Source: Bryopsis sp. KO-2023
Taxonomy: Eukaryota; Chlorophyta; Ulvophyceae; Bryopsidales; Bryopsidaceae
Direction of reading: 5' to 3'
Length of the DNA stretch: 64,000 nucleotides
Assembly (NCBI GenBank): GCA_030272585.1
Contig: BSYQ01000011.1
Span: 3,348,001-3,412,000, forward strand
Shown: positions 4,180-64,000 of the stretch, in pieces
Position numbering within the stretch: the stretch's first letter is position 1
Layout of the letters: each line of letters starts with the position of its first letter
Program-made: the position numbers and the translations under genes
Notes under the pieces: model-generated
The model's input: only the letters and a program-made list of their open reading frames with translations
The model's database searches: none
Told to the model about the DNA's origin: nothing

Positions 4180-4195
4180 GGGAAATCGAATGTAA
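4127..4195 (+). repeat. Nested junction hairpin between units A and B
   Basis: The outer arms TTACATTCGATTTCCC (4127-4142) and GGGAAATCGAATGTAA (4180-4195) are perfect 16-bp inverted repeats. Inside them TTGTC (4148-4152) can pair with GACAG (4163-4167), one pair being G-U if transcribed. The same hairpin lies at the B, C, D and E junctions and throughout the satellite arrays, where the arms covary. The end of one unit and the start of the next meet in its right arm, so it may be a terminal or recombination structure; that role is inferred. Confidence 0.75.
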
Positions 4196-24937: not shown

Positions 24938-25417
24938 GTTTGGTCCAGTGATAGGACTTTACGGTTACGGTCACCGTAACCGTACCGTAACGCCGTAACC
25001 GGACCGTAACCGGAGTACAATTTTCGTCGGAAAATCGTACTTTTACGGCCGTAACCGTAGCTCCGTACCGCTCCGTACCGCTCCGTACCGGACCGTAATG
25101 ACCGTAACGGCCGTACCAACCGTAAACCGTAGAAAGTGACCCCCGCGGGGTCCCGCGATTCCAAAGGAACCCAGGGGGATTCGAACCTGCGACCCTACAG
25201 ACTGCAACCTAACGCTTTAGCACTGAACCACACTACTTCACGATGATTTAGAGCCTGCCGTAGCTATACCGTACCTGTTCCGTACCGTAAAAACAGCATA
25301 TTACTCCGGTTACGGTACGGAATTACGGCCGTAGTACGGTGACCGTAACCCGACCGTAACCGGACCGGACCGGAGCCGGACCAAAAAATCGGCCCAAGTC
25401 CTATCTCTGGTTTGGTC
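24938..25417. mobile_element. hAT-like MITE 1 with target duplications
   Basis: The element is 24946-25409 (464 bp). Its ends are inverted: CAGTGATAGGACTT at the left and, read on the other strand, CAGAGATAGGACTT at the right. It is flanked by the 8-bp duplication GTTTGGTC (24938-24945 and 25410-25417). CAG-initial ends with 8-bp duplications are typical of hAT elements. Both arms are dense in CCGTAAC/GTTACGG motifs, which may serve as subterminal binding repeats. There is no transposase ORF, so it is non-autonomous. It is the most diverged of the three copies in the window. Confidence 0.85.
25170..25240 (-). pseudogene. tRNA-like core of MITE 1
   Basis: On the minus strand, an A-box-like TGGTTCAGTGCTAAAGCG (25213-25230) precedes a TTGCAGT anticodon-loop-like segment and the B box GGTTCGAATCC. 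Spacing matches a tRNA-Cys(GCA) scaffold, but the acceptor ends do not pair, the anticodon stem is poor, and the T-stem here keeps only three of five pairs. It is best read as a tRNA-derived sequence, possibly still able to bind TFIIIC; it is not a working tRNA. Confidence 0.55.
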
Positions 25418-25533
25418 CTTCCCGTGTTATTTTCACGTGCTCATTCGTGTCACAACTTCGTGTGTCAGACGACGGTTTTCTTTACATTCGATTTCCCTCT
25501 CTTTGTCAAAGCAATGAGACAGACCGGTTAATT

Positions 25534-28181
25534 GGGAAATCGTAATGTAATGAAGATTTTCCTTGGATCAACGATTTTGTCCCCGCAGGGTACTAGCCCT
25601 GAGGGCGATTTTCCCTGCGTAGCCGGTCACGCTCCGCGCTCGCATGTCTGATTTTCGAGGCGCCATGTCGGTCGACGCTGCTCGCATGGCGGACCGGCGC
25701 GCAGCTGCAGCGAAACTGCGCGGAGCGCAGGTCCGACTCGCGCGACTTGGGTGGTTTCCAGGGCGCTGCGCGAAGCGCAGCGAACTGGCGGAGAACGAGG
25801 GGGGGAGGCGCTGCGCGAAGCGCGGCGCGGCACCATCGAAAAGGAAAGGGCGAGGGAGCTGCGCGCTGCGCAGCTCGCTCTTTTTAAAAGGTGATGGGCG
25901 AGGTCGCTGGGGGCAGCGCAGCGACCTATCAAATTAAAAAAAGTGATGGGCGAGGGAGCTGCGCAGCGCGCAGCGACCTGTTGAATTAAAAGGTGTGATG
26001 GGCGAGGGTGCTGTGCGCTGCGCGCGGCGCCCTCGCCCAGGTCTGGCTCGCTCGGAGTTGGAAAAAAAGGAAAAAACAGGAAAAAACAGCGAAAAAGAGC
26101 GCCTTGGGAAAAGGCGCTGCGCGCAGTGCGACGCGCTTTCGGTGATCGTGATCGAAAAAACAACTGAGCCTTGCTTCCCTTCCCTTACAGAAATAGAAAA
26201 AAACAACTGGGCCGTTCCCCTCCCCTTGAAGCAACCCAAAAAAAACCACTCTCTCCCTTCCCATCCCCCTTGAAAAAAACTGGCACTTCCTTTTTCCTTT
26301 TCTTCAAACAAGGAAAACAAGCCTCTCTTCTCCTCTCCCCTCCTTTTCCCTTCCCTTGAAAGAACACTGCAACAAATATAAAATAAAACTGGTCCTTCCC
26401 TTCTCCCTTATAAAAAAGAGACCCCCCCCCCTCCCTTTCCCCTTCAAAAAAATAAAAACTGGCCTATCCCTCCCCTTGAAACAGGGAAAAGGAAGCCTTT
26501 GCTCCCTTCCCTTGCTCTACTCTGCTCCCTTCCCTTACTTGAAAACATAGAAAAAAAACTGGGCGATTCCCTTCCCCTTGAAACAAGCAACAAAAAACCA
26601 GGCCCTTCCCTTTCCCATTGAAAAGAACACCTGGCCCTTCTCTTTCCCTTTGCTCCGTCTCAAAAAAAATACCCTTCCATTCCATTCAATCGAAAAAAAA
26701 CAACTCTTCCCTTCCCCCTTTTCACTTCCCAGGAACCACAGCAAACGACCTATCCTTTCCAAAAAAAAAACAAAAAAAAAACAGGCCCTTCCCTTTCCCA
26801 TTGAAAAGAACACCTGGCCCTTCTCTTTCCCTTTGCTTAGCAAAAAAAATACCCTTCCATTCCATTCAATCGAAAAAAAACAACTCTTCCCTTCCCCCTT
26901 TCCACTTCCCAGGAACCACAGCAAATGACCTATCCTTTCCAAAAAAAAAACAAAAAAAAAACAGGCCCTTCCCAACCGATCTGTTTGCTGACGGTGTTTT
27001 TACTTCGACTGAATTCAACGTAAAAAGCTGTCAATGATGGATACCAGGAAGTTTGACAGAAGCCAGAGTTGTGGATGGGCTGCCCCTCACGCCTGCAAAT
27101 GGTTCAGAGGAAGCTAGCACTACGTTTACTGCAAGAGTTCCTTCCCTCTTTACGTTTGTGGTCTCACTTGGGAGTCGAACCCAACCTGGAACCCGCTGTG
27201 AGCATTATTTCACGTTCACTCACCTGCGTTTCTTTCGTCTCCTGGCGAATACCCTCCTCACACGAGTAAGCTCTGGTTTCTCGTGTTTCCGGTCGTCTCT
27301 GCCGCCGTCGGCCGTATCGTCAACACGCAGCGAGTCCATGTCGATATCTCGAGAAAGTGTTCTCGCGGATCCCCCCCACCATTCCACCCCACCAAAACCG
27401 TGAAGCGAAATCGAAGTCCTCAAGGATGACGTACCTGGAAGAGTGATGTGACTCTCATCCCGTCCCTGTCATTGACGACTTCCGATTCTCGCGTAACCAT
27501 CGACGATCCACGAAGATCGAGCAAGGAAAGTCGAGGAAGGAAAAAAAGGCGACGAGCGACGACGTACGCGACGACGCAGGCGTGTTGAGAACGCGAACAA
27601 GGTGAGAGAAGAAGGAGGGTGAAGTGGGTTCGACTCCCACACCTCCTGAAGGCTTATTTCCTGGAAATTCAAACATGTAGGGGTCGACAGAAAAGGTTTT
27701 AGGGAAACCTCTCCCTATTCTTCTTTGTTTTCCTTTTTCTGGCTTGGTTCCACCTTGTTCGCGTTCTTTTTTGGGAGAAACCAACTTCGTCGCCGAAAAG
27801 ATCTCCCTCCTGTTGAGATTCTTTATGTTTTTCCTCATAACTTCTCTTATACCGTGTCGTTTCCGACGAAACAAAGCGCGTTGGAAACGTGGAGTCGAGG
27901 GGAAGCCACTACATACTATTTTGTCACGTTTTAAAGGAAAAACTTTAGGTCGATCGTCCTTTGACGACTTCCGGACGTCGGGAGGGATTCGGCCACCCAA
28001 ATATTGTATAAAACAAAAGAAAGCTATTGTATAAGCCTAATGGAGTGCAAATAAATGATTTTTTGAGGCATTGACTATCGTGGGTGTTTCGCATGAAAAA
28101 TCAGCCCAAGAAACCCCTTGAATCTTCTCTCTATTCACGGAATTTCAATGAATTCGTTTGTTTTTTCGAATATTTGTATAG
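25534..28181 (+). other. 5' region of unit D
   Basis: Collinear with unit B 4180-6826 at an offset of 21,355. It has leader and GC satellite, polypyrimidine block (26155-26980), T-arm hairpins (27163-27202 minus, 27613-27647 plus) and the TATA-like box (28007-28013). The leader begins with the ATCGTAATG variant created at the C/D junction. No gene was found. Confidence 0.65.
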
Positions 28182-31100
28182 ATGACGTCAGTGGGTGAGA
28201 CGAGGAGCTTCACAAGGTCCGACGTGCAAGCTCGATGGATGTGGAGGAATCAAGTGTGCGTGGGGTTGGGTATCCCAAACAGGCGAGTGATCTCTCGTGA
28301 TCCTTTCGTGATCACTCCAGTGACGAGTTCCCCGTACGGGAGACAAAATTTTTCGTTATACGAGCAAATGAACGTGGCCCTAGGGGCAGAATTTTTTGTC
28401 GATCACAGTTCAGCAAACGGGGCGTGTTTTTTTAACGCCATATCCAAAGAAATAAGCGGGGACGAAACGAGTGCGGGGACCCTACGAACCTTGGTATGCG
28501 ACCTGGCGGCGACGCACCCCGTGACTTTTGCCGCTTTTGAGGGGTGCACCATCGATGAGATAAAAATAAAGATAAATAACATGCGGTCCAACGATACGTG
28601 GGCGAGCACGTGGACTATTTTTGCGGCCGCGACCCTCCTCCAAACCCCTTTTGAAATACAATTATACCAACGTGACTACCCTGTATTCAAATTTAATCCT
28701 TTGTTCCCCACTCACTTGATTACCACCAGCGCCATGGATAACGTGTTTGTTAGATTATGTAACACGAAAGGTAACCACTACGACAGGGTGTACGAGCGAA
28801 ACGAGCTCCAAGCGATCACCCCCGCCTCATTACTTGCGAATATTAACGTGCCGATCGTGGGAAACAGAACTCCCCAACTCAAAAATGAAACCGGAACCGA
28901 AACGGAAACGAAAGAAGAAAGAAAAAAACGCCTTGCGAGGGAAAGAAAGAGGAAGCAACGAAGCGATGCGAAGAAAGCAAAAGAGATGAGGGATGCTGAG
29001 AAAGAAAACATTGCGAGCAAGCCCGAAACAGAGAAGGAAAAAAGGTTGGAGAAACGTGCTTTGCTGAAGCGCGAGAGGGAAGCGAAATTGTCCGAAGAAA
29101 AGAAAAAAGCATTGCGTGAAACACACGCGAGCGAGGAACGAAAGAGAACGGACACGAGCGAAAAGAAAGCGTCCGACGAGAACACGAGGAAAGAAAACGA
29201 GCGAAAGAGGAAAAAGCAACGAGAGGAATGGGCGACCAGAAAAAAGATCCACAAGCAAAATCTCAAACGCACGAGCGTCGACGAGCTGATTCGCGATTGG
29301 GAGCGTCACTTGGAGCAGACCGTTACCTGGCACGGCAACGTTTGCCAGAGTTGTGGAGAGACGGGGCCGGGTGCCGACTTCAGCGATTCCACGTGTGCGA
29401 GGTGCAAGAGGAATCCGCGCTATCGACGAGCGTACAGCGAAGAGAACGGGCTCTGGCCGGATCCCGTTCCTCCCGAGCTCACCGGCCTCACCCAGATGGA
29501 GGAGATGTTGATCGCCCGTATTCACCCTTGCATGTACATTGCGAGGATCCACAAGAGCGGGATGCATCGGTTGAGCGGTCACTTCATTGGTTTTATGGCG
29601 GACCACTCGGAGACGATCGAGGCCCTTCAGCGCCTGCCGGTGGACCCGAGAGACCTTCCTTGGGTGGTGGTCCGACAACACGGGGTTGATCGGACTCATC
29701 AGGATCACATCGTGCGACGAGGGGTTGTTCTCCGTGCCTTGCGTTGGTTGCAGAAGAACAACCCCTGGTATGCTGGGATTGAGATTGACGAGGACGTTAT
29801 CGCTCGTCTTCCGGAGCACGGGAGCCCCGAGGGATTGCGAGAGTTCACCGAGCGGCAGGCCGCCCAGGCTGAGGAGGAGGGCGGGTTCCGCGCCCACGAT
29901 TCGGACGACGAGGCGGACGGCGATGTGTCGATGCACTCTCATGCACCCACGACAATCCGTGGAGTTCGAGAGGTCGACAAGATCCGAGCATCTGTCACAG
30001 AGGCGATCGATCGTGCCGAGGGGAACAACGTGGCTCCCTTTCCGGTGCGAGAGAGGGAGCCGATCAAGGAGTTCATGACCCGAGGACTCTTTTCGATGGC
30101 GTTCCCCACCCTTTTCCCTTGTGGCGCTGCCGACTACACGACGGCCGGCTTTCCCGACGTCAATGGCATGCGAGAGTACGCTCTTCATCTGATGCGATGG
30201 CCGGATCGTCGTTTCGCGCGGCATCCACGCTTCAAGTTCTTGGTCGTCAATCTCGCAGATCGCAAAGCCGCGTTTTGCACGGCACGGGTGTTCCTCAAGG
30301 GGAACCTAGACATCAACAAGATGACGGTGAAGGACTTGAAGGACCTCGTAGATGAGGGTGATTCGAGCCTTATGAGGAAGATTCTTGCCTTTGGTTCAAG
30401 GATACGAGGAACGAAGCAATTTTGGTCCGATAGACGTGGCGAGCTGGAGGAGATGTTTCGGCAGCTCACGCACCCGGTCGAGGGTAGCCAGGGCTACATG
30501 CCCTCGCTCTTCTTCACCTTGAGCTCCGCCGAGATGTTTTGGCCACAGATCGAGACTCTCCTCCAACTCGACTACTCAGATTGTGCCACGGAGGCCCAGA
30601 GGAAGGCGAAGAAGAGGCGAGCGATGGTGGACAACGCCGATCTCATCGATGCCTACTTCTTGGAGCGATCCGAGTCGTTCCTCAAGAAGGTGATGGTGCC
30701 TTACTTCGGCGCGGACGAGTTTTGGGCGAAGATCGAGTACCAGTGGCGAGGGGCGCCCCACATGCACGGGTTCTTGTGGCTACCGGATGCGCCCAACTTG
30801 ATGCGGAGCGCCCACGAGGAGATGAGCGCCGACACGAGAGCAGAGGTCATCGAGTACTTCACAGAGACAGTCGGCATCACCTTGGACATGGACGAGGACT
30901 TCCGCAGCGCTCCCTCCACGCCTCACCCGTCCACGAGGACGTACACGTCGATCGGCACGAGCGACGAGGAGCGTGCAAGGGACTTGGAGGAGCTGTTGAG
31001 GGTTCAGGGACCCCACGTGTGCACCAACAGCTGCTTCAAGTCCAAGAGGGACCGGGACTTGGGCAGGTGCAGGTTCAGGTTCCCGAGGGAGGTGCGGGCG

Positions 31101-33602
31101 CATGCGGAGATCGTGGAGGATCCGAGGCAAAAGTACAGGCTCGAGCTCGCGAGGAGGCCCGGAAAGCAGCAGCGCTTCAACCAGTACCAGGCGCGACCGA
31201 TGCTGCAGGGCTTCAGGGCCAACATCGACATACAACCTATCTTGTCGTTGACGGCCCTCTTGAGATACCTGTGCGGCTACACGTGCAAGGCCGAGGTGGA
31301 GAGCGGCGGCTTGATGGCGGTGTTTTCGGAGATCCTCGACGACGCGTGTCGCACCGCTGAGGAGGCCAACTCCATCTCGGCCGTCGTCAAGATGCTCAAC
31401 CGCACCATCAAGGAGCATGACGTATGCACGATGGAGGCCTTCCACAAGCTTGCCTCGGCCAAGCTCACGATGGCCTCTAGGACTTTCGGTGTCATAGTGC
31501 TTGACGATTCGAGAGAGATCACCACAGAAGAGGGTGGTTTCCTTCGACGTTCGTGGATGGACGAGTACAAAAACCGTCCGGACGACATCAAGGAGTGCTT
31601 GGAGGACTTCTTTCGATGGTACGACCTTCCGAGGAATGCGGCACCCAAGCGCAAGATGAAGCCCAAGATCATCAGGATCTTTCCGCCTTGCCGGCCAGTG
31701 CCGCGTGATGACGAGCGCTTTCCCGACTTTTGCCAGCAATACCTTATCCGCTACAAGGAGTGGAGAGACGTGGATCGGGATTTGCTTGGTGGCGGTGAGA
31801 TGACTTGGGTCGAGGCATTCGATGCGTTCTTGGAGGAGCAGCCCATGCACAGGGCGATCGATTTGTTCAGAGAGGTTTCCATCGCTCCCGAGGTGGGGGA
31901 TGATGATGAGGAGGAGGATGGCTCCGAGGGGAGCGACGACGACTATCGACAGTTCCCCGAGGACGAGCAGGATGATTGGATGCGGGCTTTGGCTGCCCAT
32001 CCACAGTTTGCCCGACCCATGATGGAGGCCTCCGATCATGATTGGCACGCGAGCGCGGCCCAGTACGACGTCCCGACCATGCGGACCTTCATCCAGGACG
32101 TGAGACGGGACGGCCCTTTGCCCAGAGATCGTGACCACCTCGATCGTGATCAGCTCGTTGACAGTCAACGCCTCGCGTATGACATCATCGTGGAGCATGC
32201 TCGTTCCGACGACCCTCCTCCCTTGCGCATGATCGTCGAGGGGACCGCCGGCACGGGCAAGAGTGCCCTGATTCATGCCGTCGTTGCCGCGATCGAGAGA
32301 GAGCATGGGGAGGGTTCGGTCGTGGTTGCCGCTCCGACAGGTTGTGCCGCCTTCAACGTCGGCGGTTGCACGCTCCATTCTCTATTGATGTTGCCCGTGG
32401 GCTCGAGGTGCAAGGACCTCAAGGGCAACGCCTTGAGCCTTCTTCAGGAGAGATTGAGGGGCGTGCGATATCTCATCATCGATGAGAAATCGATGATCGG
32501 GGCATCGACGTTTGCATCGATCGACTCCCGGGGTAGACAGGCGTTTCCGGAGCACGCGGATCAGTTGTTTGGGGGCTTGTCGATTGTCATTGAGGGTGAT
32601 TTCGGACAGCTCCCTCCCGTCAGCGATGCCGAGATGTTCGATCGCGGGCAGAGGCCCAAGGCGGATCGCTTGCGCGGCTTTGCTGCGTATCGTCAGTTCA
32701 GGGTGGTGGTTCGTCTCACTGCGATCATGCGACAGGCGGGCCAAGACCAGGTGGCCTTCCGGGACATTCTCATGAGGCTTCGACGAGGATGTCCCACGGA
32801 TTCCGACATCGACGCCCTGATGGCTCGCAACCTCCGTACCCTTTCAGTGGACGACAGACAGGCTTTCTCGGATGCCTTGTACCTATGCGCCACCAACGCC
32901 CAAGCCGAGAGCCATAACAACGATCGGCTCGTGGCGTTGGATCAACCCACGGCGATGATTAGGGCGGAGGATTTGCGAGTGCCCAGGGGTCTTGACGTGG
33001 AGGACGCGACGAATCTCCCATCTACCTTGCGCTTATGCAAGGGAGCGAGGGTGATGCTGCGAGCCAACCCGTGGACAGAGGCCGGCCTCATCAACGGCGC
33101 CATGGGTTTCGTTCATGACATCGTGTACACGTCCACGACTCCCCCTGCATTGCCGGATGCTGTCTTGGTTCGGTTCGACGACTACAGGGGGCCGAGCTTC
33201 TTGGAGGGGGTCGAGGGGGTCGTTCCTATTGTCCCTATCACTCGCGACGTCCGGACATCTGCGACCAGGGCTTCTGGAGAGAGGAAGATGCTTCCTCTCA
33301 TGCCGGCTTGGGCCATCTCCATCCACAAGTCCCAAGGCAAGGGACTCGACAGGGTGTTGGTGGACCTTGGGACGAAGGAGTTTGCGGCAGGCATTACTTT
33401 CGTGGCCGTCAGCCGATCCTTCACCTACGAGGGTCTCGCCTTCGATCCGCCCATCACTCGCGGTCGGATCCGATCCCTTGCCAAGCTGAAGAAGCTTGGT
33501 CCGCGGTTGGCGGAGTTTGCGAGGTTGGAGGGTCTTGCGGAGCAGACGAGGACCTTGTATGACGCTGAGGGCATTGAGGGAGTGCTTCGATATATTCAGT
33601 AG
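28182..33602 (+). CDS. OTU-Rep-helicase protein, copy D (1,806 aa)
   Basis: Full-length, intronless and identical in translation to copies B, C and E. All catalytic residues named for copy B are present, so this copy is potentially functional. It is the last + strand copy. Transcription would run into the satellite block at 34.9 kb and toward the convergent copy E, which faces it from the other side of that block. Confidence 0.95.
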   Translation: MTSVGETRSFTRSDVQARWMWRNQVCVGLGIPNRRVISRDPFVITPVTSSPYGRQNFSLYEQMNVALGAEFFVDHSSANGACFFNAISKEISGDETSAGTLRTLVCDLAATHPVTFAAFEGCTIDEIKIKINNMRSNDTWASTWTIFAAATLLQTPFEIQLYQRDYPVFKFNPLFPTHLITTSAMDNVFVRLCNTKGNHYDRVYERNELQAITPASLLANINVPIVGNRTPQLKNETGTETETKEERKKRLARERKRKQRSDAKKAKEMRDAEKENIASKPETEKEKRLEKRALLKREREAKLSEEKKKALRETHASEERKRTDTSEKKASDENTRKENERKRKKQREEWATRKKIHKQNLKRTSVDELIRDWERHLEQTVTWHGNVCQSCGETGPGADFSDSTCARCKRNPRYRRAYSEENGLWPDPVPPELTGLTQMEEMLIARIHPCMYIARIHKSGMHRLSGHFIGFMADHSETIEALQRLPVDPRDLPWVVVRQHGVDRTHQDHIVRRGVVLRALRWLQKNNPWYAGIEIDEDVIARLPEHGSPEGLREFTERQAAQAEEEGGFRAHDSDDEADGDVSMHSHAPTTIRGVREVDKIRASVTEAIDRAEGNNVAPFPVREREPIKEFMTRGLFSMAFPTLFPCGAADYTTAGFPDVNGMREYALHLMRWPDRRFARHPRFKFLVVNLADRKAAFCTARVFLKGNLDINKMTVKDLKDLVDEGDSSLMRKILAFGSRIRGTKQFWSDRRGELEEMFRQLTHPVEGSQGYMPSLFFTLSSAEMFWPQIETLLQLDYSDCATEAQRKAKKRRAMVDNADLIDAYFLERSESFLKKVMVPYFGADEFWAKIEYQWRGAPHMHGFLWLPDAPNLMRSAHEEMSADTRAEVIEYFTETVGITLDMDEDFRSAPSTPHPSTRTYTSIGTSDEERARDLEELLRVQGPHVCTNSCFKSKRDRDLGRCRFRFPREVRAHAEIVEDPRQKYRLELARRPGKQQRFNQYQARPMLQGFRANIDIQPILSLTALLRYLCGYTCKAEVESGGLMAVFSEILDDACRTAEEANSISAVVKMLNRTIKEHDVCTMEAFHKLASAKLTMASRTFGVIVLDDSREITTEEGGFLRRSWMDEYKNRPDDIKECLEDFFRWYDLPRNAAPKRKMKPKIIRIFPPCRPVPRDDERFPDFCQQYLIRYKEWRDVDRDLLGGGEMTWVEAFDAFLEEQPMHRAIDLFREVSIAPEVGDDDEEEDGSEGSDDDYRQFPEDEQDDWMRALAAHPQFARPMMEASDHDWHASAAQYDVPTMRTFIQDVRRDGPLPRDRDHLDRDQLVDSQRLAYDIIVEHARSDDPPPLRMIVEGTAGTGKSALIHAVVAAIEREHGEGSVVVAAPTGCAAFNVGGCTLHSLLMLPVGSRCKDLKGNALSLLQERLRGVRYLIIDEKSMIGASTFASIDSRGRQAFPEHADQLFGGLSIVIEGDFGQLPPVSDAEMFDRGQRPKADRLRGFAAYRQFRVVVRLTAIMRQAGQDQVAFRDILMRLRRGCPTDSDIDALMARNLRTLSVDDRQAFSDALYLCATNAQAESHNNDRLVALDQPTAMIRAEDLRVPRGLDVEDATNLPSTLRLCKGARVMLRANPWTEAGLINGAMGFVHDIVYTSTTPPALPDAVLVRFDDYRGPSFLEGVEGVVPIVPITRDVRTSATRASGERKMLPLMPAWAISIHKSQGKGLDRVLVDLGTKEFAAGITFVAVSRSFTYEGLAFDPPITRGRIRSLAKLKKLGPRLAEFARLEGLAEQTRTLYDAEGIEGVLRYIQ

Positions 33603-34901
33603 TTTTTTTCATGTGTTTGTGGGGACCATATTGTTTTCCTTTGGTTCGAGTGTTCTTTTTTCTGTTTTTGATCATATTTTTCTTTTATATGTTCCTCTTT
33701 GATTGTGAGCATGTTTTATGATGTTTTGTTTTAAATTTGTGTGTCTTCGATGTTGTTTCTGAGTTTTCCACGTAGGATTGATCCAATAGACAGTCACCCA
33801 ACGAAGATTCTCCCTTGTGCCGTTTTTTTGTGCCGATTCTATGTATCACACGTTTTGTTTTCTTCCTTTTTTCTTCGTTATTTGCAGTATCCTCGATCCG
33901 ATGGGTTTTCTTTTTGTAGATTTCGATACCTCCGCATAGTTCGTTTGCTTTCATGTCGGTTCTACCCTCTCGGATGATGCTATTCTCTTTAAGTTTCTTG
34001 GGAGTTCTCTGAGCTATAAGCAATCAGCAACCCGTTTTTTGTTGCGTTCCCCCGCGCATTACGTGTGTCGCCCCCCACACGAGTCACGGTTTGCCCCGAC
34101 CGTTTGGATTATTGGATGTTTCCCCGCATCCGTTGGGTACGGCTCCTCTCTATAGCCTTTGCTGATTGCTATGGTGATGTGCACTCTCTCGATTCTATTG
34201 AGATTAAGCTTCGCTCGAGTGGAAGTTTTGCTTTCATTGTTGAAAAAAAAGACGGAAAAATTGATGCAAGAGAGAAAGAGAGAACGGAGGATTTTTAGAC
34301 GGTAAAAAAAAAAGTTGAAGTTTCTATGCGGATCTTACGAGGTATCTTTAGGAGGGAAACGGATATGCACTGTTATGAGGTCGAGGAAAAAAAAAAAAAA
34401 AAAAAAAAAAAAATTACACCGGATTTAGGGATCATAAATAAAAAAATCATGAGGATAAAAGAAAAAAAATTTAGGGCTTAGATATTGGGATTAGAGAAAA
34501 CAAAGAACATAATAATGTTCGGTTTGGGAGTAGGAATCGGAGAAAAACTTTAAAAACTTGAAAATAAAAATAAGGAAAGAATAACGTTCGGTTTGGATTT
34601 AGGAATTGAAAAAAAAGAAGGAAAAAAAAACAAAAACAACAACATAAGGAAAGAATAACGTTTGGTTCGGATATATGGATGGGAAATAAAAATAATGATA
34701 ATTGTGATGTGAGTGGAAGTTCAGATTATGCATAGATGTTGCGAAGGCTGGTTATTTCGCTGTAATCCGTTTTAAGTTTGGTCCTTCCCGTGTTATTTTC
34801 ACGTGCTCATTCGTGTCACAACTTCGTGTGTCAGACGACGGTTTTCTTTACATTCGATTTCCCTCTCTTTGTCAAAGCAATGAGACAGACCGGTTAATTT
34901 T
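33603..34901 (+). other. 3' tail of unit D
   Basis: Same AT-rich tail as in A-C but with an A27 tract (34387-34413), shared only with copy E. It ends in a junction hairpin at about 34845-34917. Beyond it, leader and satellite sequence begins that is only similar to that beyond unit E, not identical. No gene is called. Confidence 0.7.
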
Positions 34902-36120: not shown

Positions 36121-36450
36121 TGACGTTCGATTTTCCTCTCTCCGTCGAAGCGATGAGACGGACCGGTTAATTGGAAAATCGGAGTGTAACGAAGATTTTT
36201 CTCTATTGGATCCCGATCGCGAGGAGTTTGTCGAGGCTCTGGCCCCCGATCGAAATGTCCCTGCGTCGCCGGTCACGCTCCGAGGCCGCATGTCTGATTT
36301 TCGAGGCGCCATGTCGGTCGACGCCGCTCGCATGGCGGACATGCGCGGAGCGCAGGTCCGACTCCCACGACTTTGCGAGTTTTCCAGGGCGAAAGGAAAG
36401 AAAAAAAAAAAAAAACTGGCGGAGAACGTGGGGGGAAGGCGCTGCGTGCA
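36121..36450 (+). repeat. Composite satellite repeat with type-II leader
   Basis: Opens with a hairpin of the CGATTTTCC (36128-36136)/GGAAAATCG (36173-36181) type and an inner CCGTC (36142-36146)/GACGG (36157-36161) stem. Both stems differ from the commoner version by compensating changes. The leader (36190-36275) is a different cassette, recognisable by GATCCCGATCGCGAGGAG. It recurs in reverse at about 42730-42800, 45400-45470 and 56780-56850. The MSDFRGAM-type segment follows. No gene. Confidence 0.6.
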
Positions 36451-36912
36451 CTTCACCACGTCGAAGAAGAGGCTGAACCGAGCACTCAGCACTTTGTCGC
36501 GCTGAAAACGAGTGAGAAACGAGGGAGAAAACCCAGTTTCTCTATTTTCACAGAAACTGGCGTAACTCCCTCGTTTCTCACCCGTTTTGAGCGCGACAAA
36601 GTGCTGAGTGCTCGAAAAAATGTCGCCCATACTTCTGTCCACCTGTTTTTTCGATCGAAGTATCCGGAGAGTGATTCCGAGGACTCACCTGATGCATGCA
36701 TTTTAAATGCACGTCGGAACCACTCCCAAGATATTTCGACTTAAAAAACGACCGGACAGAAGTATGGAGGACATTTTTTCGAGCACTTAGCACTTTGTCG
36801 CGCTCAAAACGGGTGAGAAACGAGGGAGTTACGCCAGTTTCTGTGAAAAAAGAAAAACTGGGTTTTCTCGCTCGTTTCTCACTCGTTTCGCACGCGACAA
36901 AGTGCGACGCGC
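36451..36912. mobile_element. Foldback element with nested palindromes
   Basis: The whole segment is one imperfect inverted repeat centred near 36,700. Each half also contains its own palindrome: 36479-36613 folds from GAGCACTCAGCACTTTGTCG to its complement, with a second stem-loop CCAGTTTCT/AGAAACTGG inside; 36780-36912 is the mirrored counterpart. At 39,455 the same flanking context (GCTGCGTGCA then GTGCGACGCG) is contiguous, consistent with an insertion. No clear target duplication or transposase was found, so the exact ends and class are open. Confidence 0.6.
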
Positions 36913-37114
36913 TTTCGGTGATCGCCAGGCATGTCGAAAAGGAAAGAGGGGCTGAGAGTTCGGAAAAAAAAAAAAAAAAAAACGAAAAAGGGGTTACCTA
37001 ATCTAAAAAGGGAAATCGAATGTAACTTACAGCTTGTGGTTCGTTGGGAGTTCGTTCGCTGGGAGTTCGTTCGCTGGGAGTTCGAAAAAAAAAAAAAAAA
37101 AAAAACGAAAAACT
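36913..37114 (+). repeat. A-tract/GTTCGCTGGGA block
   Basis: Resumed satellite context after the foldback element. It holds an A-tract block, GGGAAATCGAATGTAA (37010-37025), three tandem copies of a 16-bp GTTCGTTCGCTGGGAG-type repeat, and a second A-tract leading into the next hairpin. No gene. Confidence 0.55.
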
Positions 37115-38297
37115 GTGACGTTCGATTTTCCTCTCTCCGTCGAAGCGATGAGACGGACCGGTTAATTGGGAAATCGAATGTAATGAGATTTTCCTAGGAT
37201 CAACGATTTTGTCCCCGCAGGGTACTAGCCCTGAGGGCGATTTTCCCTGCGTAGCCGGTCACGCTCCGAGCGCGCATGTCTGATTTTCGAGGCGCCATGT
37301 CGGTCGACGCTGCTCGCATGGCGGACCGGCGCGATGCTGCAGCGAAACTGAATGGGTGAGGGAGCTGCGCGCAGCGCAGCGAACTGGCGAAGGACGAGGG
37401 GGGGAGGCGCGAAGCGCAGCAAAGGCGAAGCTAATTCGAAAAGGAAGGGCGAGGGAGGCGCAGCTCGCTCTTTTTTAAAGGTGATGGGCGAGGTCGCTGG
37501 GGGCAGCGCAGCGACCTATCAATTTAAAATTAAAAAAAGTGATGGGGAGGGAGCTGCGCGCAGCGCAGCGACCGCTTTGAAAGAGTGAGGGGCCAGGGAG
37601 CTGCGCGCTGCGCAGCGACCTGTCAAAGTGATAGGTGATGGGCGAGGGAGCTGCGCAGCGCGCAGCGACCTGTCAAAGTGACAGGGGTGATGGGCGAGGG
37701 AGCTGCGCGCTGCGCAGCGACCTGTCAACTGAACAGGTGTGATGGGCGAGGGAGCTGCGCAGCGCGCAGCGACCTATTCAATTAAAAAGTGTGATGGGCG
37801 AGGGTGCTGTGCGCTGCGCGCGACGCCCTCGCCCAGATCTGGTGCGCTCAGACTTCGAAAAAAAAAAACAAAAACCAACGAAAGAGCGCCTTGGGAAAGG
37901 GCGCTGCGCGACTGGCGCGACTTGGAAAAAACAAGGGCGCTGCGCGCGACGCCCTGGCCCAGATTTGGTTTCGAAAAAGAAAAAAAAAAAAAACACGTTT
38001 TTTTCCAAGTCGCGCCAGTCCGACTTCCGCGACTTGGAAAAAAACGAGTTCGCTGCGCGCAGCGCCCTAGCCCAGATCTGATTCGCTCGGAGTTAGAAAA
38101 AAAAACAAAAAAACCCACGTTTTTTCCCAAGTCGCGCCAGTCCGACTTCTGGTTCGCTGGGAGTTCGAAAAAAAAAAAAAAAACGAAAAAGGGGTTACCT
38201 AATGTAAAAAGGGAAATCGAATCTAACTTACAGCTTGTGGTTCGCTGGGAGTTCGTTCGCTGGGAGTTCGAAAAAAAAACAAAAAAAAAACGAACTG
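37115..38297 (+). repeat. Composite satellite repeat, near-identical to 14.65-15.6 kb
   Basis: Junction hairpin, type-I leader, MSDFRGAM-type segment and GC-core monomers. From about 37313 to at least 38158 it matches 14655-15500 of the B-C spacer at a constant offset of 22,658 with no difference noticed, including the long inverted repeat with A-tracts. This is a segmental copy of spacer DNA and contains no gene. Confidence 0.65.
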
Positions 38298-39499
38298 TTA
38301 CATTCGATTTCCCTCTCTCTGTCGAAGCGATGAGACAGACCGGTTAATTGGGAAATCGAATGTTAATGAGATTTTCCACGGATCATCAGTTTGTCCCCGC
38401 AGGGTACTAGCCCACAGGCGAAATGTCCCTGCGTAGCCGGTCACGCTCCGCGCTCGCATGTCTGATTTTCGAGGCGCCATGTCGGGCGACTCTGCCCGCA
38501 TGGCGGACGTGCGCGGAGCGCAGGTCCGACTCCAGCGACTTTGCGATTCAAGGGCGCTGCGCGAAGCGCAGCGAACTGGCGGAGAACGAGGCGGGGAGGC
38601 GCAAGCGCAGCGAAGTCGAAACCTAAAGGGCGGAGGAGCTACAGAGAACACTTGTGGAGGAGTCGAACCTCCAGTTTCGCCACTCAAGTGCGAGGTTTTT
38701 CTCTTTCTTTCACGCTGGTCGTCTTTTTTCAAAATCTGTGGGGACAGCATCTCGTTTTCGAAAGGGTCGCACTGTGGACTTTGCTGTGCGAAGCGCAGCG
38801 CAGCAAAGTCGGAACTGAAAGGGCGAGGGAGCTGCGCGCTGCGCAGCTCGCTCTTTTGAAATGGTGATGGGCGAGGTCGCTGGGGGCAGCGCAGCGACCT
38901 ATCAAAGTAAAAAAAGTGAGGGTGAGGGAGCTGCGCGCAGCGGAGCGACCGCTTGGAAAGTGTGAGGGGCCAGGGAGCTGCGCGCTGCGCAGCGATCTGT
39001 CAAAGTGACAGGGGTGAAGGGCGAGGGAGCTGCGCGCTGCGCAGCGACCTCTGAAATTAAAAAGTGTGATGGTGGGGAAGGTGCGCGCTGCGCCTTGGGT
39101 GAGGGAGCTGCGCGCAGCGCAGGCCGACTGATGCGACTTGGAGAAAACGAGGGCGTTGCGCGCTGCGCCGTCGCCCAGGTCTGGTTCGTTGGAAGTTCGA
39201 AAAAAAAAAAGATCGACGAATTAAAAAGTGTGATGTGCCAGGGAGCTGCGCGCTGCGCCTTGGGGAAGGGCGCTGTGCGCAGCGCAGGCCGACTGATGCG
39301 ACTTGGAGAAAACGAGGGCGCTGCGCGCGGCGCCCTCGCCCAGGTCTGGTTCGCTGGGAGTTCGAAAAAAAAGTTTGAACAGTGTGATGAGCCAGGAGCT
39401 GCGCGCTGCTCCCATGTCCGACTGCCGCGACTTGGGAAAAAACGAGGGTGCTGCGTGCAGTGCGACGCGCTTTCGGCGATCGCGACCCACAGGTTCGTT
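38298..39499 (+). repeat. Composite satellite repeat with inserted T-arm hairpin
   Basis: The opening hairpin has TTACATTCGATTTCCC at 38298-38313 and its complement from 38350, with a further near-copy of that complement upstream at 38211-38226. The leader is a third variant. A short unmatched stretch at about 38636-38800 carries a T-arm hairpin. GC-core monomers and A-tracts follow to about 39,490. No gene is called. Confidence 0.55.
38649..38690 (-). other. Third T-arm/B-box hairpin
   Basis: On the minus strand, CACTTG pairs with CAAGTG around a perfect T-arm: GGAGG, loop TTCGACT, CCTCC. About 12 nt separate the outer 5' strand from the T-arm. The T-loop is identical to that of the two hairpins in each Helitron unit, while all the stems differ. 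No D or anticodon arm was found. Confidence 0.45.
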
Positions 39500-40059
39500 T
39501 TGGAATCAGAGAAAAACTTAAAAAAATAAAAATAAAAACTTTAAAATAAAAATAAGGAAAGAATATCGTTCGGTTTGGATATAGGAATTGAGGAAAAAAA
39601 AGGAAAAAGAAAAAGAAAAAATAGAAAACAACATGTAAGAAAACTGGGTAAAACGAAAACAAACTTACAAAACCAAGTTTCTTTTCCCTTTCGTTTTTTC
39701 GTATTTATTGCCTTTCCTTCCCTCTGCACTACAGCATTACTTCTTGTACCTGATCATATTCTGCCCTTCTTCTCACTCCTCTTACACACCCCTCTTCTAC
39801 TTCGTTAAATGTGCGTCCTTTAACTCACTACGTTCCAGAAATTCTAACACAACATAAGGGAAGAATAACGTTTGGTTCGGATATATGGATGGGAAATAAA
39901 AAAAATAATAATTGTGATGTGAGTGGAAGTTCAGATTATGCATAGATGTTGCTAAGGCTGGTTATTTCGCTCTAATCCGTTGTAAGTTTGGTCCTTCCCG
40001 TGTTATTTTCACGTGCTCGTTCGTGTCACAACTTTTTGTGTCGGATATCGCCATTCTCA
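39500..40059 (+). mobile_element. Relic 3' tail of a Helitron-like unit
   Basis: Without any ORF, this stretch repeats the distal tail of the units in diverged form: GGTTCGGATATATGGATG, the GTGATGTGAGTGGAAGTTCAG phrase, then GTTTGGTCCTTCCCGTG and the hairpin entry. It is truncated on its 5' side near the GAATCGGAGAAAAAC part of the tail. It is interrupted by a 214-bp insertion at 39635-39848. It shows that old unit ends persist inside the satellite block. Confidence 0.65.
39628..39855. other. 214-bp insertion with 7-bp direct repeats in the relic tail
   Basis: The insert (39635-39848) lies between two copies of ACAACAT (39628-39634 and 39849-39855), where intact tails have one. It begins GTAAGAAAACTGG and its other end, read in reverse, is GTTAGAATTTCTGG, so the ends are weakly inverted. 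GTAAGA at the start, TTCTAAC near the end and an AAG shortly after also resemble spliceosomal intron signals. It has no counterpart elsewhere in the window and no gene in it. Confidence 0.4.
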
Positions 40060-40971
40060 TTACATTCGATTTCCCTCTCTCTGTCAAAGCGATGAGACAG
40101 ACCGGTTAATTGGGAAATCGAATGTTAATGAGATTTTCCACGGATCAACGAAATGTCCCTCCACCCGCTTGGTGGGTTGCAGGGTACTAGCCGACAGGCA
40201 AAATGTCCCTGCGTCGCCGGTCACGCTCCGCGCTCGCATGTCTGATTTTCGAAGCGCCATGTCGGTCGACGCCGCTCGCATGGCGGACATGCGCGGAGCG
40301 CAGGTCCGACTCCAACCACTTTGCGATTCTTTCCAGGGCGCTGCGCGAAGCGCAGCGAACTGGTGGAGAACGATGGAAAAAAAAATAAAAAATTAAAGGG
40401 CGAGGGAGCTGCGCAGCGCGCAGCGACCTGTCGAGTTAACAAGTGTGATGGGCGATGGAGCTGCGCGCAGCGCAGCGACTTTTCGAATTAGAAGGTGTGA
40501 GGGGCGAGGGAGCTGCGCAGCGCGCAGCGACCTGTCAAATCGACAGGTGTGAGGGGTGAGCGAGCTGCGCGCAGCGCAGCGACCTGTTTACTTGAAAGGT
40601 GTGAGGGGCGAGGGAGCTGCGCAGCGCGCAGCGACCTTTCGAATTCAAAAGTGTGATGGCCCAGGGAGCTGCGCGCTGCGCAGCGACCTGTTATATTAAC
40701 AAGTGTGATGGGCGAGGGAGCTGCGCGCTGCGCGCGGCTCCCTCGCCGAGGTCTGGTTCGCTGGGAGTTCGAAAAAAAAAAAAAACGAAAAAGGGGTTAC
40801 CTAATGGGAAAAGGGAAATCGAATGTAACTTACAGATTGTGGTTCTCCGGGAGTTCGTTCGCTGGGAGTTCGTTCGCTGGGAGTTCGAAAAAAAAAAAAA
40901 CAAAAACGAAAAACTGTTACATTCGATTTCCCTCTCTCTGTCAAAGCGATGAGACAGACCGGTTAATTGGG
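40060..40971 (+). repeat. Satellite repeat up to the inversion junction
   Basis: Hairpin TTACATTCGATTTCCC (40060-40075) with inner CTGTC (40081-40085)/GACAG (40096-40100), a leader variant, the MSDFRSAM-type segment, then six GC-core monomers (40395-40740) whose core alternates between the two mirror orientations. A-tract blocks follow, and a last hairpin is cut off after GGTTAATTGGG at about 40971. No gene. Confidence 0.6.
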
Positions 40972-41301
40972 TCCGCGGTGCGTGACCGGCCAGGGGGACA
41001 TTTTGCCTTTGGGCTAGTACCCTACCAACCAAACCAGGTCCGGTGTGGGACATTTTGTTGATCCGTGGAAAATCTTCATTACATTACGATTTCCCAATTA
41101 ACCGGTCTGTCTCATCGCTTTGACAGAGAGAGGAAAATCGAATGTAACAGTTTTTCGTTTTTTTTTTTTTTTTTTTCGAACTCCCAGCGAACGAACTCCC
41201 AGCGAACCACAAGCGAACCACAAGCTGTAAGTTACATTCGATTTCCCTTTTTACATTAGGTAACCCCTTTTTCGTTTTTTTTTTTTTTTCGAACTCCCAG
41301 C
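40972..41301 (-). repeat. First inverted satellite repeat after the orientation switch
   Basis: From here to 46,649 all leaders, hairpins and satellite monomers run on the minus strand. The piece starts inside a leader (reverse complement of GGGTACTAGCCC near 41013-41024) and passes a hairpin at about 41078-41148. It reaches the GTTCGCTGGGAG repeats and an A-tract (T-tract on this strand), where MITE 2 is inserted. No gene. Confidence 0.6.
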
Positions 41302-41774
41302 CAGAGATAGGACTTTACGGTTACGGTCACCGTAACCGGACCGTAACCACCGTAACCGGACCGTAACCGGAGTACAATTTTCGTCAGAAAATCGTACTTT
41401 TACGGCCGTAACCGTAGCACCGTACCACTCCGTACCGCTCCGTACCGGACCGTACCGACCGTAACGGCCGTAACAACCGTAAACCGTAGAAAGTGACCCC
41501 CGCAGGGTCCCACGATTCCAAAGGAACCCAGGGGGATTCGAACCCGCGACCCTACTGACTGCAGCCTAACGCTTTAGCACTGAACCACGCTACTTCACGG
41601 TGATTTAGGGCCTACCGTAGTTATACCGTACCTGTTCCGTACCGTAAAAACAACATATTACTCCGGTTACGGTACGGAGTTACGGCCGTAGTACGGTGAC
41701 CGTAACCCGACCGTAACCGGACCGGACCGGAGTCGGACCAAAAATTTGGCCCAAGTCCTATCTCTGCTCCCAGC
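41294..41774. mobile_element. hAT-like MITE 2 with target duplications
   Basis: The element is 41302-41766 (465 bp), with perfect CAGAGATAGGACTT inverted ends and the 8-bp duplication CTCCCAGC at 41294-41301 and 41767-41774. A paralogous repeat at 43010-43040 has the uninterrupted context with a single CTCCCAGC (43023-43030), which is an empty site. The arms are built of CCGTAACCGG-like motifs. Sequence is nearly the same as MITE 3. Confidence 0.88.
41526..41597 (-). pseudogene. tRNA-like core of MITE 2
   Basis: Minus-strand tRNA-Cys-like scaffold with the A-box-like region, a CTGCAGT loop that would give anticodon GCA, and B box GGTTCGAATCC. The T-stem has four of five pairs, better than in MITE 1. 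The acceptor strands still do not pair. It is regarded as captured tRNA sequence, not a gene. Confidence 0.55.
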
Positions 41775-42070
41775 GAACCAGAAGTCGGACTGGCGCGACT
41801 TGGGGAAAAACGTGGGTTTTTTTTTTTTTTTCTAACTCCGAGCGAATCAGATCTGGGCTAGGGCGCTGCGCGCAGCGAACTTGTTTTTTTCCAAGTCGCG
41901 GAAGTCGGACTGACGCGACTTGGAAAAAAACGTGTTTTTTTTTTTTTTTTTTTTCGAAACCAAATCTGGGCCAGGGCGTCGCGCGCAGCGCCCTTGTTTT
42001 TTCCAAGTCGCGCCAGTCGCGCAGCGCCCTTTCCCAAGGCGCAGCGCGCAGCTCCCTGGCCCATCACACT
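41767..42070 (-). repeat. Inverted A-tract and satellite block
   Basis: Minus-strand version of the block seen at 15.25-15.5 kb, with CCAAGTCGCG inverted repeats bracketing T-tracts, followed by one GC-rich monomer ending near 42,065. It matches other copies until the unmatched island begins. No gene. Confidence 0.55.
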
Positions 42071-42530
42071 TTTTAAGTGGTTTTTTTTTACGACTAAAGC
42101 CCAGAGAAAACGAAAAAGAACGAGAAAAGCTAAAACAGGATCCCCCAGAACCTGTAAATCTAAATCTAAAACACCGACTCTGGAGAAAGGGTCGGAAAAC
42201 GAACGAACCGAACAGAAAGGTTCGAAACTACTGCCTGGAAAGACCTTCAGGCGCAACTGGACTAAAAAAGGAAAAAAAAAACCCTTCTGGACCCCCCCTG
42301 GGGTAAATCCCTGCAGAATTTGTGCGAAAAATTACTTGGACTTCGAAAAACGTTCGAAAAAAGAGAGACCCCCTGCTTAAGGGTCGAGAGAAAAAGAACA
42401 GTGGTCGCCTGTCTACCAGGGAGACGGTCGCAGGTCGACATGTTCGAAAATAGAAGCTCCAAAAAACGAAATTACCACTTGCAGTCGACCTCCAATGGTC
42501 AATGGTCAAGGGCCGGCTGTGAGAGGAAGA
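42071..42530. other. Unmatched single-copy island in the satellite block
   Basis: About 460 bp without similarity to any other part of the window, lying between satellite monomers. An open + strand frame passes through it (41994-42380). Its basic, K/R-rich product carries a CRIC motif and shows no domain I can identify. A fragment of an unrelated mobile element or captured host sequence are both possible. I see no terminal repeats or target duplication. Confidence 0.4.
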
Positions 42531-44215
42531 CGTTTCGACGCAGGGGCAAGACGAAACACTTCGCGCGGCGCCTCCCCCCTCGTTCTCCGCCAGTTCGCTG
42601 CGCGAAGCGAAGAAAATCGCAAAGTCGTGGGAGTCCGACCCGCGCTCCGCGCAGGTCCGCCATGCGAGCGGCGTCGACCGACATGGCGCCTCGAAAATCA
42701 GACATGCGGCCTCGGAGCGTGACCGGCCAGGGGGACATTTCGATCGGGGGCCAGAGCCTCGACAAACTCCTCGCGATCGGGATCCAATAGAGAAAAATCT
42801 TCGTTACACTACGATTTTCCAATTAACCGGTCTGTCTCATCGCTTCGACAGAGAGAGGGAAATCGAACGTAACAGTTGTTCGTTTTTTTTTTGTTTTTTT
42901 TTCGAACTCCCAGCGAACGAACTCCCAGCGAACGAACTCCCAGAGAACCACAATCTGTAAGTTACATTCGATTTCCCTTTTTCGATTAGGTAACCCCTTT
43001 TTCGTTTTTTTTTTGTTTCGAACTCCCAGCGAACCAGAAGTCGGACTGGCGCGACTAGGGAAAAAACGTGGTTTTTTTTTGTTTTTTTTCGAAACCAAGT
43101 CTGGGCCAGGGCGTCGCGCGCAGCGCCCTCGTTTTTTCCAAGTCGCGCCAGTCGCGCAGCGCCCTTTCCCAAGGCGCTCGTTCGTTGTTTTTTTTTTTCT
43201 AACTCCCAGCGAACCAGATCTGCGCCCAGCGACCTAACCCATCCCTTTAAGATCCCTTTATTTATTCCAACAGGTCGCTGCGCTGCGCCCAGCGACCTCA
43301 CCCATCCCTTTTTTTATTCCAACAGGTCGCTGCGCTGCGCCCAGCGAACTCGACCATATCTTTTTTTAAACCAACAGGTCGCTGCGCTGCGCCCAGCGAC
43401 CTCGCCCATCACTTGTTTTAAGTGGTCGTCTGTAATTTCGCAGCTCCCTGTCCCATCACCTTTTTAAAGGAGCGAGCTGCGCAGCGCGCAGCTCCCTCGC
43501 CCTTTCACTTTCGAAGCTCCCTGTCCCATCAATTTACTGAAGTGATCGCTGCGCTGCGCGCAGCTCCCTGGCGCTGCGCGCACCTCCCTCACCCATCACA
43601 CTTTTTAAATTTACAGGTCGCTGCGCAGCGCGCAGCTCCCTCGCTCTTTCACTTTCGAAGCCCCCTGTCCCATCAGTTTATTGAAGAGGTCGCTACGCTA
43701 CGCGCAGCTCCCTGGCGCTGCGCGCACCTCACTCACCATCATTTTTTTTTAATATGATAGGTCGCTGCGCTGCCCCCAGCGACCTCGCCCATCACCTTTT
43801 CAAAGGAGCGAGCTGCGCAGCGCGCAGCTCCCTCGCCCTTTCCTTTTCGATGGTGCCGCGCTGCGCTTCGCGCAGCACCTCCCCCCCTCGTTCTCCGCCA
43901 GTTCGCTGCGCTTCGCGCAGCACCCTGGAAACCACCCAAGTCAAGGGAGTCGGACATGCGCTCCGCGCAGTTTCGCTGCAGCAGCGCGCCGGTCCGCCAT
44001 GCGAGCGGCGTCGACCGACATGGCGCCTCGAAAATCAGACATGCGGCCTCGGAGCGTGACCGGCTACGGGGACATTTTGCCTTTGGGCTAGTACCCTGCA
44101 AGCCAGCGAGTGGAGGGACATTTTGTTGATATAAGGAAAATCTTCATTACATTACGATTTCCCAATTAACCGGTCCGTCTCATCGCTTCGACAGAGAGAG
44201 GAAAATCGAACGTCA
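42531..44215 (-). repeat. Inverted composite satellite repeats
   Basis: Two composite repeats on the minus strand. The first has the MSDFRGAM-type segment and a type-II leader (42730-42800), closing with a hairpin at about 42819-42865. The second has A-tract blocks, GC-core monomers (43210-43740), another MSDFRGAM-type segment (43980-44045) and a leader like that at 40.2 kb. Its hairpin at about 44155-44205 is the one instance where the inner stem is mismatched. No gene is seen. Confidence 0.6.
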
Positions 44216-44698
44216 CAGTTTTTCGTTTTTTTTCGTTTTTTTTTTCGAACTCCCAGCGAACGAACTCCCAGCGAACGAACTCCCAGCGAATCAGAAAATG
44301 CAAGTTCCATTCGATTTCCCTTTTTCCATTATGTAACCCCTTTTTCGTTTTCTTTTTTTTTTTTCGAACTTGTAGCGAACCAGACCTGGGCGAGGGCGCA
44401 GCGCGCAGCACCCTCGCCCCTCACACTTTCTAATTCGACAGGTCGCTGCGCAGCGCGCAGCTCCCTGAGCGATCACACTTTCTAATTCGAAAGGTCGCTG
44501 CGCGCTGCGCAGCTCCCTCGCCCCTCACACCTTTCAATTGAACAAGTCGCTGCGCAGCGCGCAGCTCCCTCGCCCCTCACACCTGTCGATTCGACAGGTC
44601 GCTGCGCAGCGCGCAGCTCCCTCGCCCATCACACCTGCGCCCATCAAACCTGTGAATTTGACAGGTCGCTGCGCGCTGCGCAGCTCCCTCGCCCATCA

Positions 44699-45179
44699 CC
44701 CCTGTCCAGAGATAGGACTTGGGCCAAATTTTTGGTCCGACTCCGGTCCGGTCCGGTTACGGTCGGGTTACGGTCACCGTACTACGGCCGTAACTCCGTA
44801 CCGTAACCGGAGTAATATGTTGTTTTTACGGTACGGAACAGGTACGGTATAACTACGGTAGGCCCTAAATCACCGTGAAGTAGCGTGGTTCAGTGCTAAA
44901 GCGTTAGGCTGCAGTCAGTAGGGTCGCGGGTTCGAATCCCCTTGGGTTCTTTTGGAATCGCGGGACCCTGCGGGGGTCACTTTCTACGGTTTACGGTTGT
45001 TACGGCCGTTACGGTCGTTACGGTCCGGTACGGAGCGGTACGGAGTGGTACGGTGCTACGGTTACGGCCGTAAAAGTACGATTTTCTGACGAAAATTGTA
45101 CTCCGGTTACGGTCCGGTTACGGTGGTTACGGTCCGGTTACGGTGACCGTAACCGTAAAGTCCTATCTCTGCCCCTGTC
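44699..45179. mobile_element. hAT-like MITE 3 with target duplications
   Basis: The element is 44707-45171 (465 bp), in the opposite orientation to MITEs 1 and 2. It has CAGAGATAGGACTT ends and the 8-bp duplication CCCCTGTC (44699-44706, 45172-45179). The near-identical repeat at 56,540-56,580 carries a single CCCCTGTC (56552-56559) in the same context, so the empty site is directly visible. No transposase is encoded. Confidence 0.88.
44879..44950 (+). pseudogene. tRNA-like core of MITE 3
   Basis: Plus-strand copy of the tRNA-Cys-like core: A-box-like TGGTTCAGTGCTAAAGCG (44886-44903), a CTGCAGT loop and the B box within GGGTTCGAATCCC (44928-44940). A T4 run shortly after it could end pol III transcription; MITEs 1 and 2 lack this run. 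The acceptor stem is absent. Confidence 0.55.
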
Positions 45180-63682: not shown

Positions 63683-64000
63683 CTTTGCAAATATTCGAAA
63701 AAACAAACGAATTCATTGAAATTCCGTGAATAGAGAGAAGATTCAAGGGGTTTCTTGGGCTGATTTCTCATGCGAAACACCCACGATAGTCAATGCCTCA
63801 GAAAATTATTTATTTGCACTCCATTAGGCTCAGACGGTAGCTTTCTTTTGTTTTATACAATATTTGGGTGGCCGAATCCCTCCCGACGTCCAGAAGTCGT
63901 CAAAGGACGATCGACCTAAAGTTTTTCCTTTAAAACGCGACGAAATAGTATGTAGTGGCTTCCCCTCGACTCCACGTTTCCAACGCGCTTTGTTTCGTCG
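63683..64000 (-). promoter_or_regulatory. Promoter-side region of unit F
   Basis: Collinear with the 318 bp upstream of the ORF in units B-E and nearly identical to it. The TATA-like box is at 63851-63857, and the CCTAATGGAGTGCAAATAAA phrase between TATA and ATG is retained. The T-arm hairpins would lie beyond the window. Confidence 0.45.

What the first reader, a model, noticed from the sequence alone, without database searches (positions are those of the whole stretch)
24938..45179. Family of hAT-like MITEs with a tRNA-like core and visible empty sites
Three 464-465 bp elements (24946, 41302, 44707) each have CAG-initial 14-bp inverted ends, a perfect 8-bp target duplication and an empty paralogous site in the window. 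All carry a tRNA-Cys-like segment with a consensus B box between arms made of CCGTAAC-type motifs. A hAT MITE that has captured a tRNA-derived, potentially pol III-transcribed core is unusual. MITEs 2 and 3 are almost identical, MITE 1 older.
Basis: partly seen in the sequence, partly recalled or inferred. Interest (0 to 1): 0.75.

Follow-up and report, generated by a model that had tools for sequence, protein, structure and literature searches.

The report
hAT MITEs with a tRNA-like core
These are three recent copies of a small "hitch-hiking" DNA transposon, apparently of a green alga, that shares its ends with a larger hAT transposon of the same genome and carries in its middle a decayed tRNA-like stretch of unknown use.

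Summary
In detail: three 464-465 bp elements, each with a perfect 8-bp duplication and exact empty sites elsewhere in the window. The 91-Mb genome has 359 places with both ends at this spacing; a pattern that also demands the B-box 9-mer between the ends finds 350. Perfect 8-bp duplications flank 77 of 80 copies examined. Thirty-two such 3' ends each lie near a hAT transposase hit. The CCGTAA arms are this hAT's subterminal repeats. The core is not in the hAT. It has A- and B-box-like sequences but is no tRNA gene: at best 18.5 bits against a cut-off of 29, and the 'Cys' triplet differs between subfamilies. A 330-bp sister with the same ends and no core has 6 close copies. Pol III use is untested. 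A well-supported hAT MITE family with unusual, unexplained cargo.

The parts
24938..24945 (+). target duplication GTTTGGTC, left copy, element 1
24946..25409 (+). MITE 1, 464 bp, a-type 5' end (CAGTG...)
25130..25255 (-). core of MITE 1 (approximate limits); tRNA-like part reads on the - strand, B box GGTTCGAATCC
25410..25417 (+). target duplication GTTTGGTC, right copy, element 1
41294..41301 (+). target duplication CTCCCAGC, left copy, element 2
41302..41766 (+). MITE 2, 465 bp
41490..41615 (-). core of MITE 2 (approximate limits), tRNA-like on - strand
41767..41774 (+). target duplication CTCCCAGC, right copy, element 2
44699..44706 (+). target duplication CCCCTGTC, left copy, element 3
44707..45171 (-). 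MITE 3, 465 bp, inverted relative to 1 and 2
44858..44983 (+). core of MITE 3 (approximate limits), tRNA-like on + strand; T4 10 bases behind the B box
45172..45179 (+). target duplication CCCCTGTC, right copy, element 3
4043..4074 (+). empty site of element 1 (exact; further exact ones at 13408, 34764 and 46754-)
15486..15517 (-). empty site of element 2 (exact; another at 38144-)
56540..56571 (+). empty site of element 3 (exact)

Best explanation
The elements are non-autonomous hAT transposons (MITEs). Shown: they share the 14-bp ends, the outer ends and the CCGTAA/TTACGG subterminal repeats with a ~5.1-kb hAT in the same genome that encodes a Hermes-type dimerisation domain, and they insert with 8-bp duplications. 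Inferred: the transposase of that hAT binds the ends and subterminal repeats and moves the MITEs by cut and paste. Shown: the ~125-bp core has no counterpart in the hAT, is common to the subfamilies examined, and holds A-box- and B-box-like sequences at tRNA-like spacing. Inferred: the core descends from a tRNA gene or tRNA-derived repeat picked up once between two hAT ends; it is now passive cargo or at most a weak pol III/TFIIIC site. Subfamilies then diverged and exchanged outer ends by recombination (one recombinant copy seen, L107).
For: Partner: L101, 5,142 bp, TSD CCCCAAAT, same TIRs; MITE 3' 105 bp 97-99% and 5' 46-47 bp 94% identical to it. The b-type MITE L104 shares 124 bp at 99.2% with the 5' ends of two further hAT copies, L113 and L114, themselves 98.9-100% identical to L101's 5' end. 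PF05699 E 5.9e-19; Hermes 1.4e-8. 32 hAT 3' ends, each within about 2.3 kb of a PF05699 hit. TSDs: 70 of 72, 6 of 7, 1 of 1 (L111). TSD preference: pyrimidine at position 2 in 87%, purine at 7 in 87%, both strands pooled. Subterminal repeats: 42 CCGTAA/TTACGG per kb in both hAT ends, 0 in the window outside the MITEs. Core in 9 of 9 aligned elements; 350 places with both ends and the exact B-box 9-mer between them; no consensus B box in the hAT.
Against: No transposition was observed. L101's gene is split over several frames; introns are presumed, not shown. In 2 of 3 hAT loci fetched long (L099, L100) the 5' end was not found and the homology to L101 stops inside. The hAT also has an internal CCGTAA block at 2150-2400, so the motif is not confined to its ends. 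The a-type elements share only the first 46-47 bases of the hAT's 5' end. The tRNA match is below Rfam's cut-off wherever scanned; the predicted folds of the two cores folded are not cloverleaves.
Confidence: 0.85

Rival explanations
1. The tRNA-like core is an active pol III promoter or TFIIIC-binding site that helps the MITE spread, by opening chromatin or by making a regulatory RNA, and this explains why core-bearing copies far outnumber core-less ones.
For: B box exact in 10 of 11 elements compared (one mismatch in L106); box columns vary less (4 of 22) than the other tRNA-like columns (21 of 50), Fisher p 0.06. The same-ended core-less 330-bp sister has 6 full-length copies among the 40 scored against 350 places with the B box.
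Against: In 7 of 10 elements no T4 run stands within 100 bases behind the B box (an eleventh row, L106, was mis-parsed and is left out). Copy number can differ by chance, age or length. The 3' arm is as conserved as the boxes. The sequences compared are related and partly redundant. No expression data.
Confidence: 0.12
2. The tRNA resemblance is a coincidence: an unrelated filler sequence with a chance B box.
For: No tRNA call by ARAGORN or at Rfam's gathering score; for element 3 even a relaxed scan of 106 bases gives no tRNA match, only a 6-bit tmRNA piece at the B box; folds not cloverleaf.
Against: B box with A box in 21 of 20,000 shuffles; one diverged copy, L105, matches the tRNA model from D arm to T arm, 18.5 bits, E 0.079 for 106 bases against all 4,227 families.
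Confidence: 0.2
3. The core is a SINE that jumped into a MITE and now spreads in it.
For: tRNA-like head on one strand.
Against: By eye, no poly-A or simple tail and no inner target duplication in the alignment (no dedicated search made). 384 core places genome-wide against 359 whole elements. Of the 30 exact core places that the listing covers (C1 to C4:19,526), 29 lie inside listed whole MITEs; the other (C3:518587) has the family's 5' end at the usual distance.
Confidence: 0.08

Closest known systems
hAT superfamily (Ac, hobo, Hermes)
   Same: 8-bp TSDs, short CAG- ends, Hermes-like C-terminal domain, subterminal repeats (that Ac has AAACGG-type ones is recalled)
   Different: A family of its own, with CCGTAA repeats; catalytic residues not examined
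hAT MITEs such as mar of Drosophila (PMC3517528; search listing and start of abstract only)
   Same: short, without coding capacity, inverted ends, hAT superfamily
   Different: here a foreign tRNA-like core sits between the hAT ends (whether mar has anything like it was not checked)
tRNA-derived SINEs (PMC7805219, passages)
   Same: A- and B-box-like sequences
   Different: inverted ends and constant 8-bp TSDs; no tail seen; no LINE end sought

Membership tests
hAT superfamily | 8-bp target duplication | tested here: met
   77 of 80 core-bearing copies perfect; also hAT L101 and core-less L110
hAT superfamily | short inverted ends beginning CAG | tested here: met
   410 places of CAGWGATAGGACTTT, reversed control 0
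hAT superfamily | hAT transposase between the same ends | tested here: met
   L101
hAT superfamily | target preference nTnnnnAn (recalled) | tested here: met
   positions 2 and 7 skewed to Y and R, 87% each; T at 2 and A at 7 alone are 46% pooled, so the fit is weak
hAT superfamily | DDE catalytic residues and RNase H fold | not tested
MITE | short, many near-identical copies, ends shared with a larger coding element | tested here: met
tRNA gene | cloverleaf scoring above Rfam RF00005 gathering score | tested here: not met
   (elements 1 and 2 scanned at gathering level only)
pol III transcription unit | A and B boxes and a near T-run terminator | tested here: inconclusive
   boxes present, T4 run absent within 100 bases in 7 of 10
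pol III transcription unit | transcript or polymerase occupancy | not testable with these tools
   no expression data
SINE | free-standing copies with tail and variable TSDs | tested here: not met
   TSDs constant at 8 bp; no free copy among 30 checkable exact core places

The most novel reading that the evidence does not exclude
A hAT MITE captured a pol III-type promoter that raises its mobility, so that the core-bearing form overran its core-less sister (350 places with both ends and the B box against 6 close core-less copies); the genome thus holds a natural with/without comparison.
Probability: 0.1. Interest if true: 0.75.

Novelty: new variant of a known kind. Interest (0 to 1): 0.4.

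Why it matters
hAT MITEs are common. One whose copies nearly all keep a tRNA-like internal stretch, beside a same-ended sister without it and a partner hAT, would let one ask whether a pol III-type module affects MITE success. If the core is inert it is still a clear case of cargo between hAT ends in an alga. I saw no report of it in the listings of searches, which cover only openly licensed PMC papers; of the listed papers I looked only at passages of two.

Tried and rejected
Rejected: tRNA-Cys identity (triplet differs between subfamilies). Rejected: the miRNA-family matches; nearly all lie in the repetitive arms and all are far below gathering scores. Two tmRNA matches at the B box (L104, 11.1 bits; element 3, 6 bits) are also far below cut-off. 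Rejected: SINE origin with free copies. Led nowhere: the tRNA ancestor; one search scored only 63 of 8,630 candidates, many of them one repeated tRNA on C5, and no genomic tRNA was compared with the core. Organism: the rbcL fragment from contig C28 has chains such as 1gk8 among its nearest (that this is Chlamydomonas, hence a green alga here, is recalled); contig sizes 91,672 and 356,152 remind me of a Bryopsis genome, from memory only.

One row dropped before counting TSDs: a second, overlapping parse of the copy in L014 (dropped). In one search the L106 row was mis-parsed because its B box has one mismatch, and in five rows (element 1, L102, L103, L107, L109) the script printed another equal-scoring A-box place than the one meant; the A-box place is taken from the sequences printed.

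Full report
What was checked. The window is made largely of repeats: five frames of 1,806-1,816 aa, of which the two scanned are Helitron-type, and direct repeats spaced about 9.4-11.5 kb apart. That is why empty paralogous sites are visible: element 1 sits in one repeat unit and other units lack it.

Genome-wide family. The window lies on contig C11 of a 91.1-Mb, 28-contig genome. A search with element 1 scored 40 of 523 candidates, all 98-100% identical over the full length or all but a base of it; with element 2, 40 of 555, all 100% after rounding. A structural pattern (both inner ends 420-450 bases apart) finds 359 places, 0 when read backwards. A pattern with the B-box 9-mer placed between the ends finds 350, backwards 0 (its length range is a little wider than that). 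One search lists 50 elements (C1 and C2 to 3.8 Mb); 47 of them are also: 36 of 36 on C1 and 11 of 14 on C2. Core 36-mer with up to 3 mismatches: 384 places. Of its 30 exact places up to C4:19,526, where the listing ends, 29 lie inside whole MITEs and the last (C3:518587) has the family's 5' end at the usual distance.

Target duplications. Of 72 distinct copies pooled have perfect 8-bp duplications; the adjoining 8-mers match in 0 of 72. Seven more copies, chosen for divergent ends, give 6 of 7, and L111 1 of 1.

The partner. Of 150 scored hits (185 candidates) to the hAT dimerisation domain, the 28 that share a score of 71.1 bits were searched for the MITE end: 25 of 28 have it within the 1.5 kb fetched (24 exact, one variant). 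The other three have a matching 3' end farther out. Two loci of other hAT groups (L039, L068) have none. Three loci were fetched longer. L101 holds a complete element of 5,142 bp with TSD CCCCAAAT. L099 and L100 show no 5' end in the stretch fetched. On C1, C2 and C3 up to 5.35 Mb, where the listing allows a check, 4 of 7 loci of this group have a 5' end about 3.6-3.7 kb upstream of the domain. The 350-aa frame matches PF05699 and the Hermes structures; the other three frames tested hit no Pfam family. The MITE 3' end is 97-99% identical to the hAT over 105 bp. One search lists 32 hAT 3' ends, each within about 2.3 kb of a PF05699 hit.

Arms. CCGTAA/TTACGG occurs 17 times in each ~400-bp end of L101, 14 times in one inner block, nowhere else in it, and not in the window outside the MITEs. 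That the transposase binds them is inferred from other hAT elements (recalled).

Subfamilies. Nine elements aligned fall into two 5' types. The b-type (L102-L106) carries the hAT's own 5' end (124 bp at 99.2% for L104). The a-type (window elements, L107, L109) has a different stretch from about base 47 to 115. L107 joins an element-1-like 5' part to a b-type 3' end, so subfamilies recombine. Among the 36 listed on C1, by their first 80 letters, I count 12 b-type, 5 element-1 type (L107 included) and 19 element-2 type (the divergent copy L109 included).

The core-less sister. C1 has 40 listed 5' ends, 36 of them of the MITEs. Of the other four, three were fetched: L110 is a complete 330-bp element with perfect TSD GTTGGGTG, 97.5% identical to element 2 over the first 80 bases and 91% over the last 103, with CCGTAAA-type repeats in place of the core; L111 is a 436-bp core-bearing element; L112 matches element 2 for 194 bases only. 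A search with L110 finds 6 copies at 97-100% over the full length (40 of 465 candidates scored). The ends alone therefore suffice for insertion. Whether the core helps is open: 350 against 6 is suggestive, not a test.

The core. On one strand it reads as a tRNA-like stretch with B box GGTTCGAATCC and, 43 bases before it in L102, an A box with one mismatch. ARAGORN (bacterial code): none in the window, the hAT or the 7 MITE loci tested; it does find the tRNA of L108. Rfam: nothing in the window at gathering level; with relaxed limits 18.5 bits in L105 and no tRNA match for the other six loci of that call or for element 3, where only short tmRNA pieces appear (L104, element 3). Elements 1 and 2 were not scanned with relaxed limits. 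Box columns vary less than the rest, 4 of 22 against 21 of 50, p 0.06, in 11 related and partly redundant sequences. A T4 run within 100 bases behind the B box is found in 3 of 10: element 3, L105 and L109. Conclusion: probably tRNA-derived, not a tRNA gene, identity undecidable here, activity unknown.

Verdict. In mechanism an ordinary hAT MITE family, well supported, with an unusual cargo that deserves an expression test.

Noticed in passing
window 6827-12247, 18345-23765, 28182-33602, 47947-53367, 58262-63712: Five long frames (1,806-1,816 aa); the two scanned have Helitron N-terminal, PIF1 helicase, DUF6570 and OTU-like domains; repeat units are spaced about 9.4-11.5 kb.
   Followed up: partly
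window 13892-15228, 37527-37886, 40337-40800: Repeats at 52-bp spacing inside the Helitron-rich region.
   Followed up: no
G000:C5 about 2.78-3.77 Mb: Dozens of equal-scoring tRNA matches, many at about 3-3.7 kb spacing: perhaps one tRNA gene in long tandem arrays.
   Followed up: no
G000: Several other hAT transposase groups with open frames of 774-839 aa in many equal-scoring copies: hAT elements seem to have been recently active here.
   Followed up: no
L107 (G000:C1:6855163-6855615): MITE that looks recombinant between two subfamilies.
   Followed up: partly
L101, bases 3884-4602 of the element: 122-bp tandem array in the 3' part of the hAT; its copy number may explain the variable distance between transposase domain and 3' end.
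   Followed up: partly
window about 25138-25152 and the same place in other copies: GC-rich near-palindrome (GACCCC...GGGGTC) behind the tRNA-like part of the core, seen by eye.
   Followed up: no
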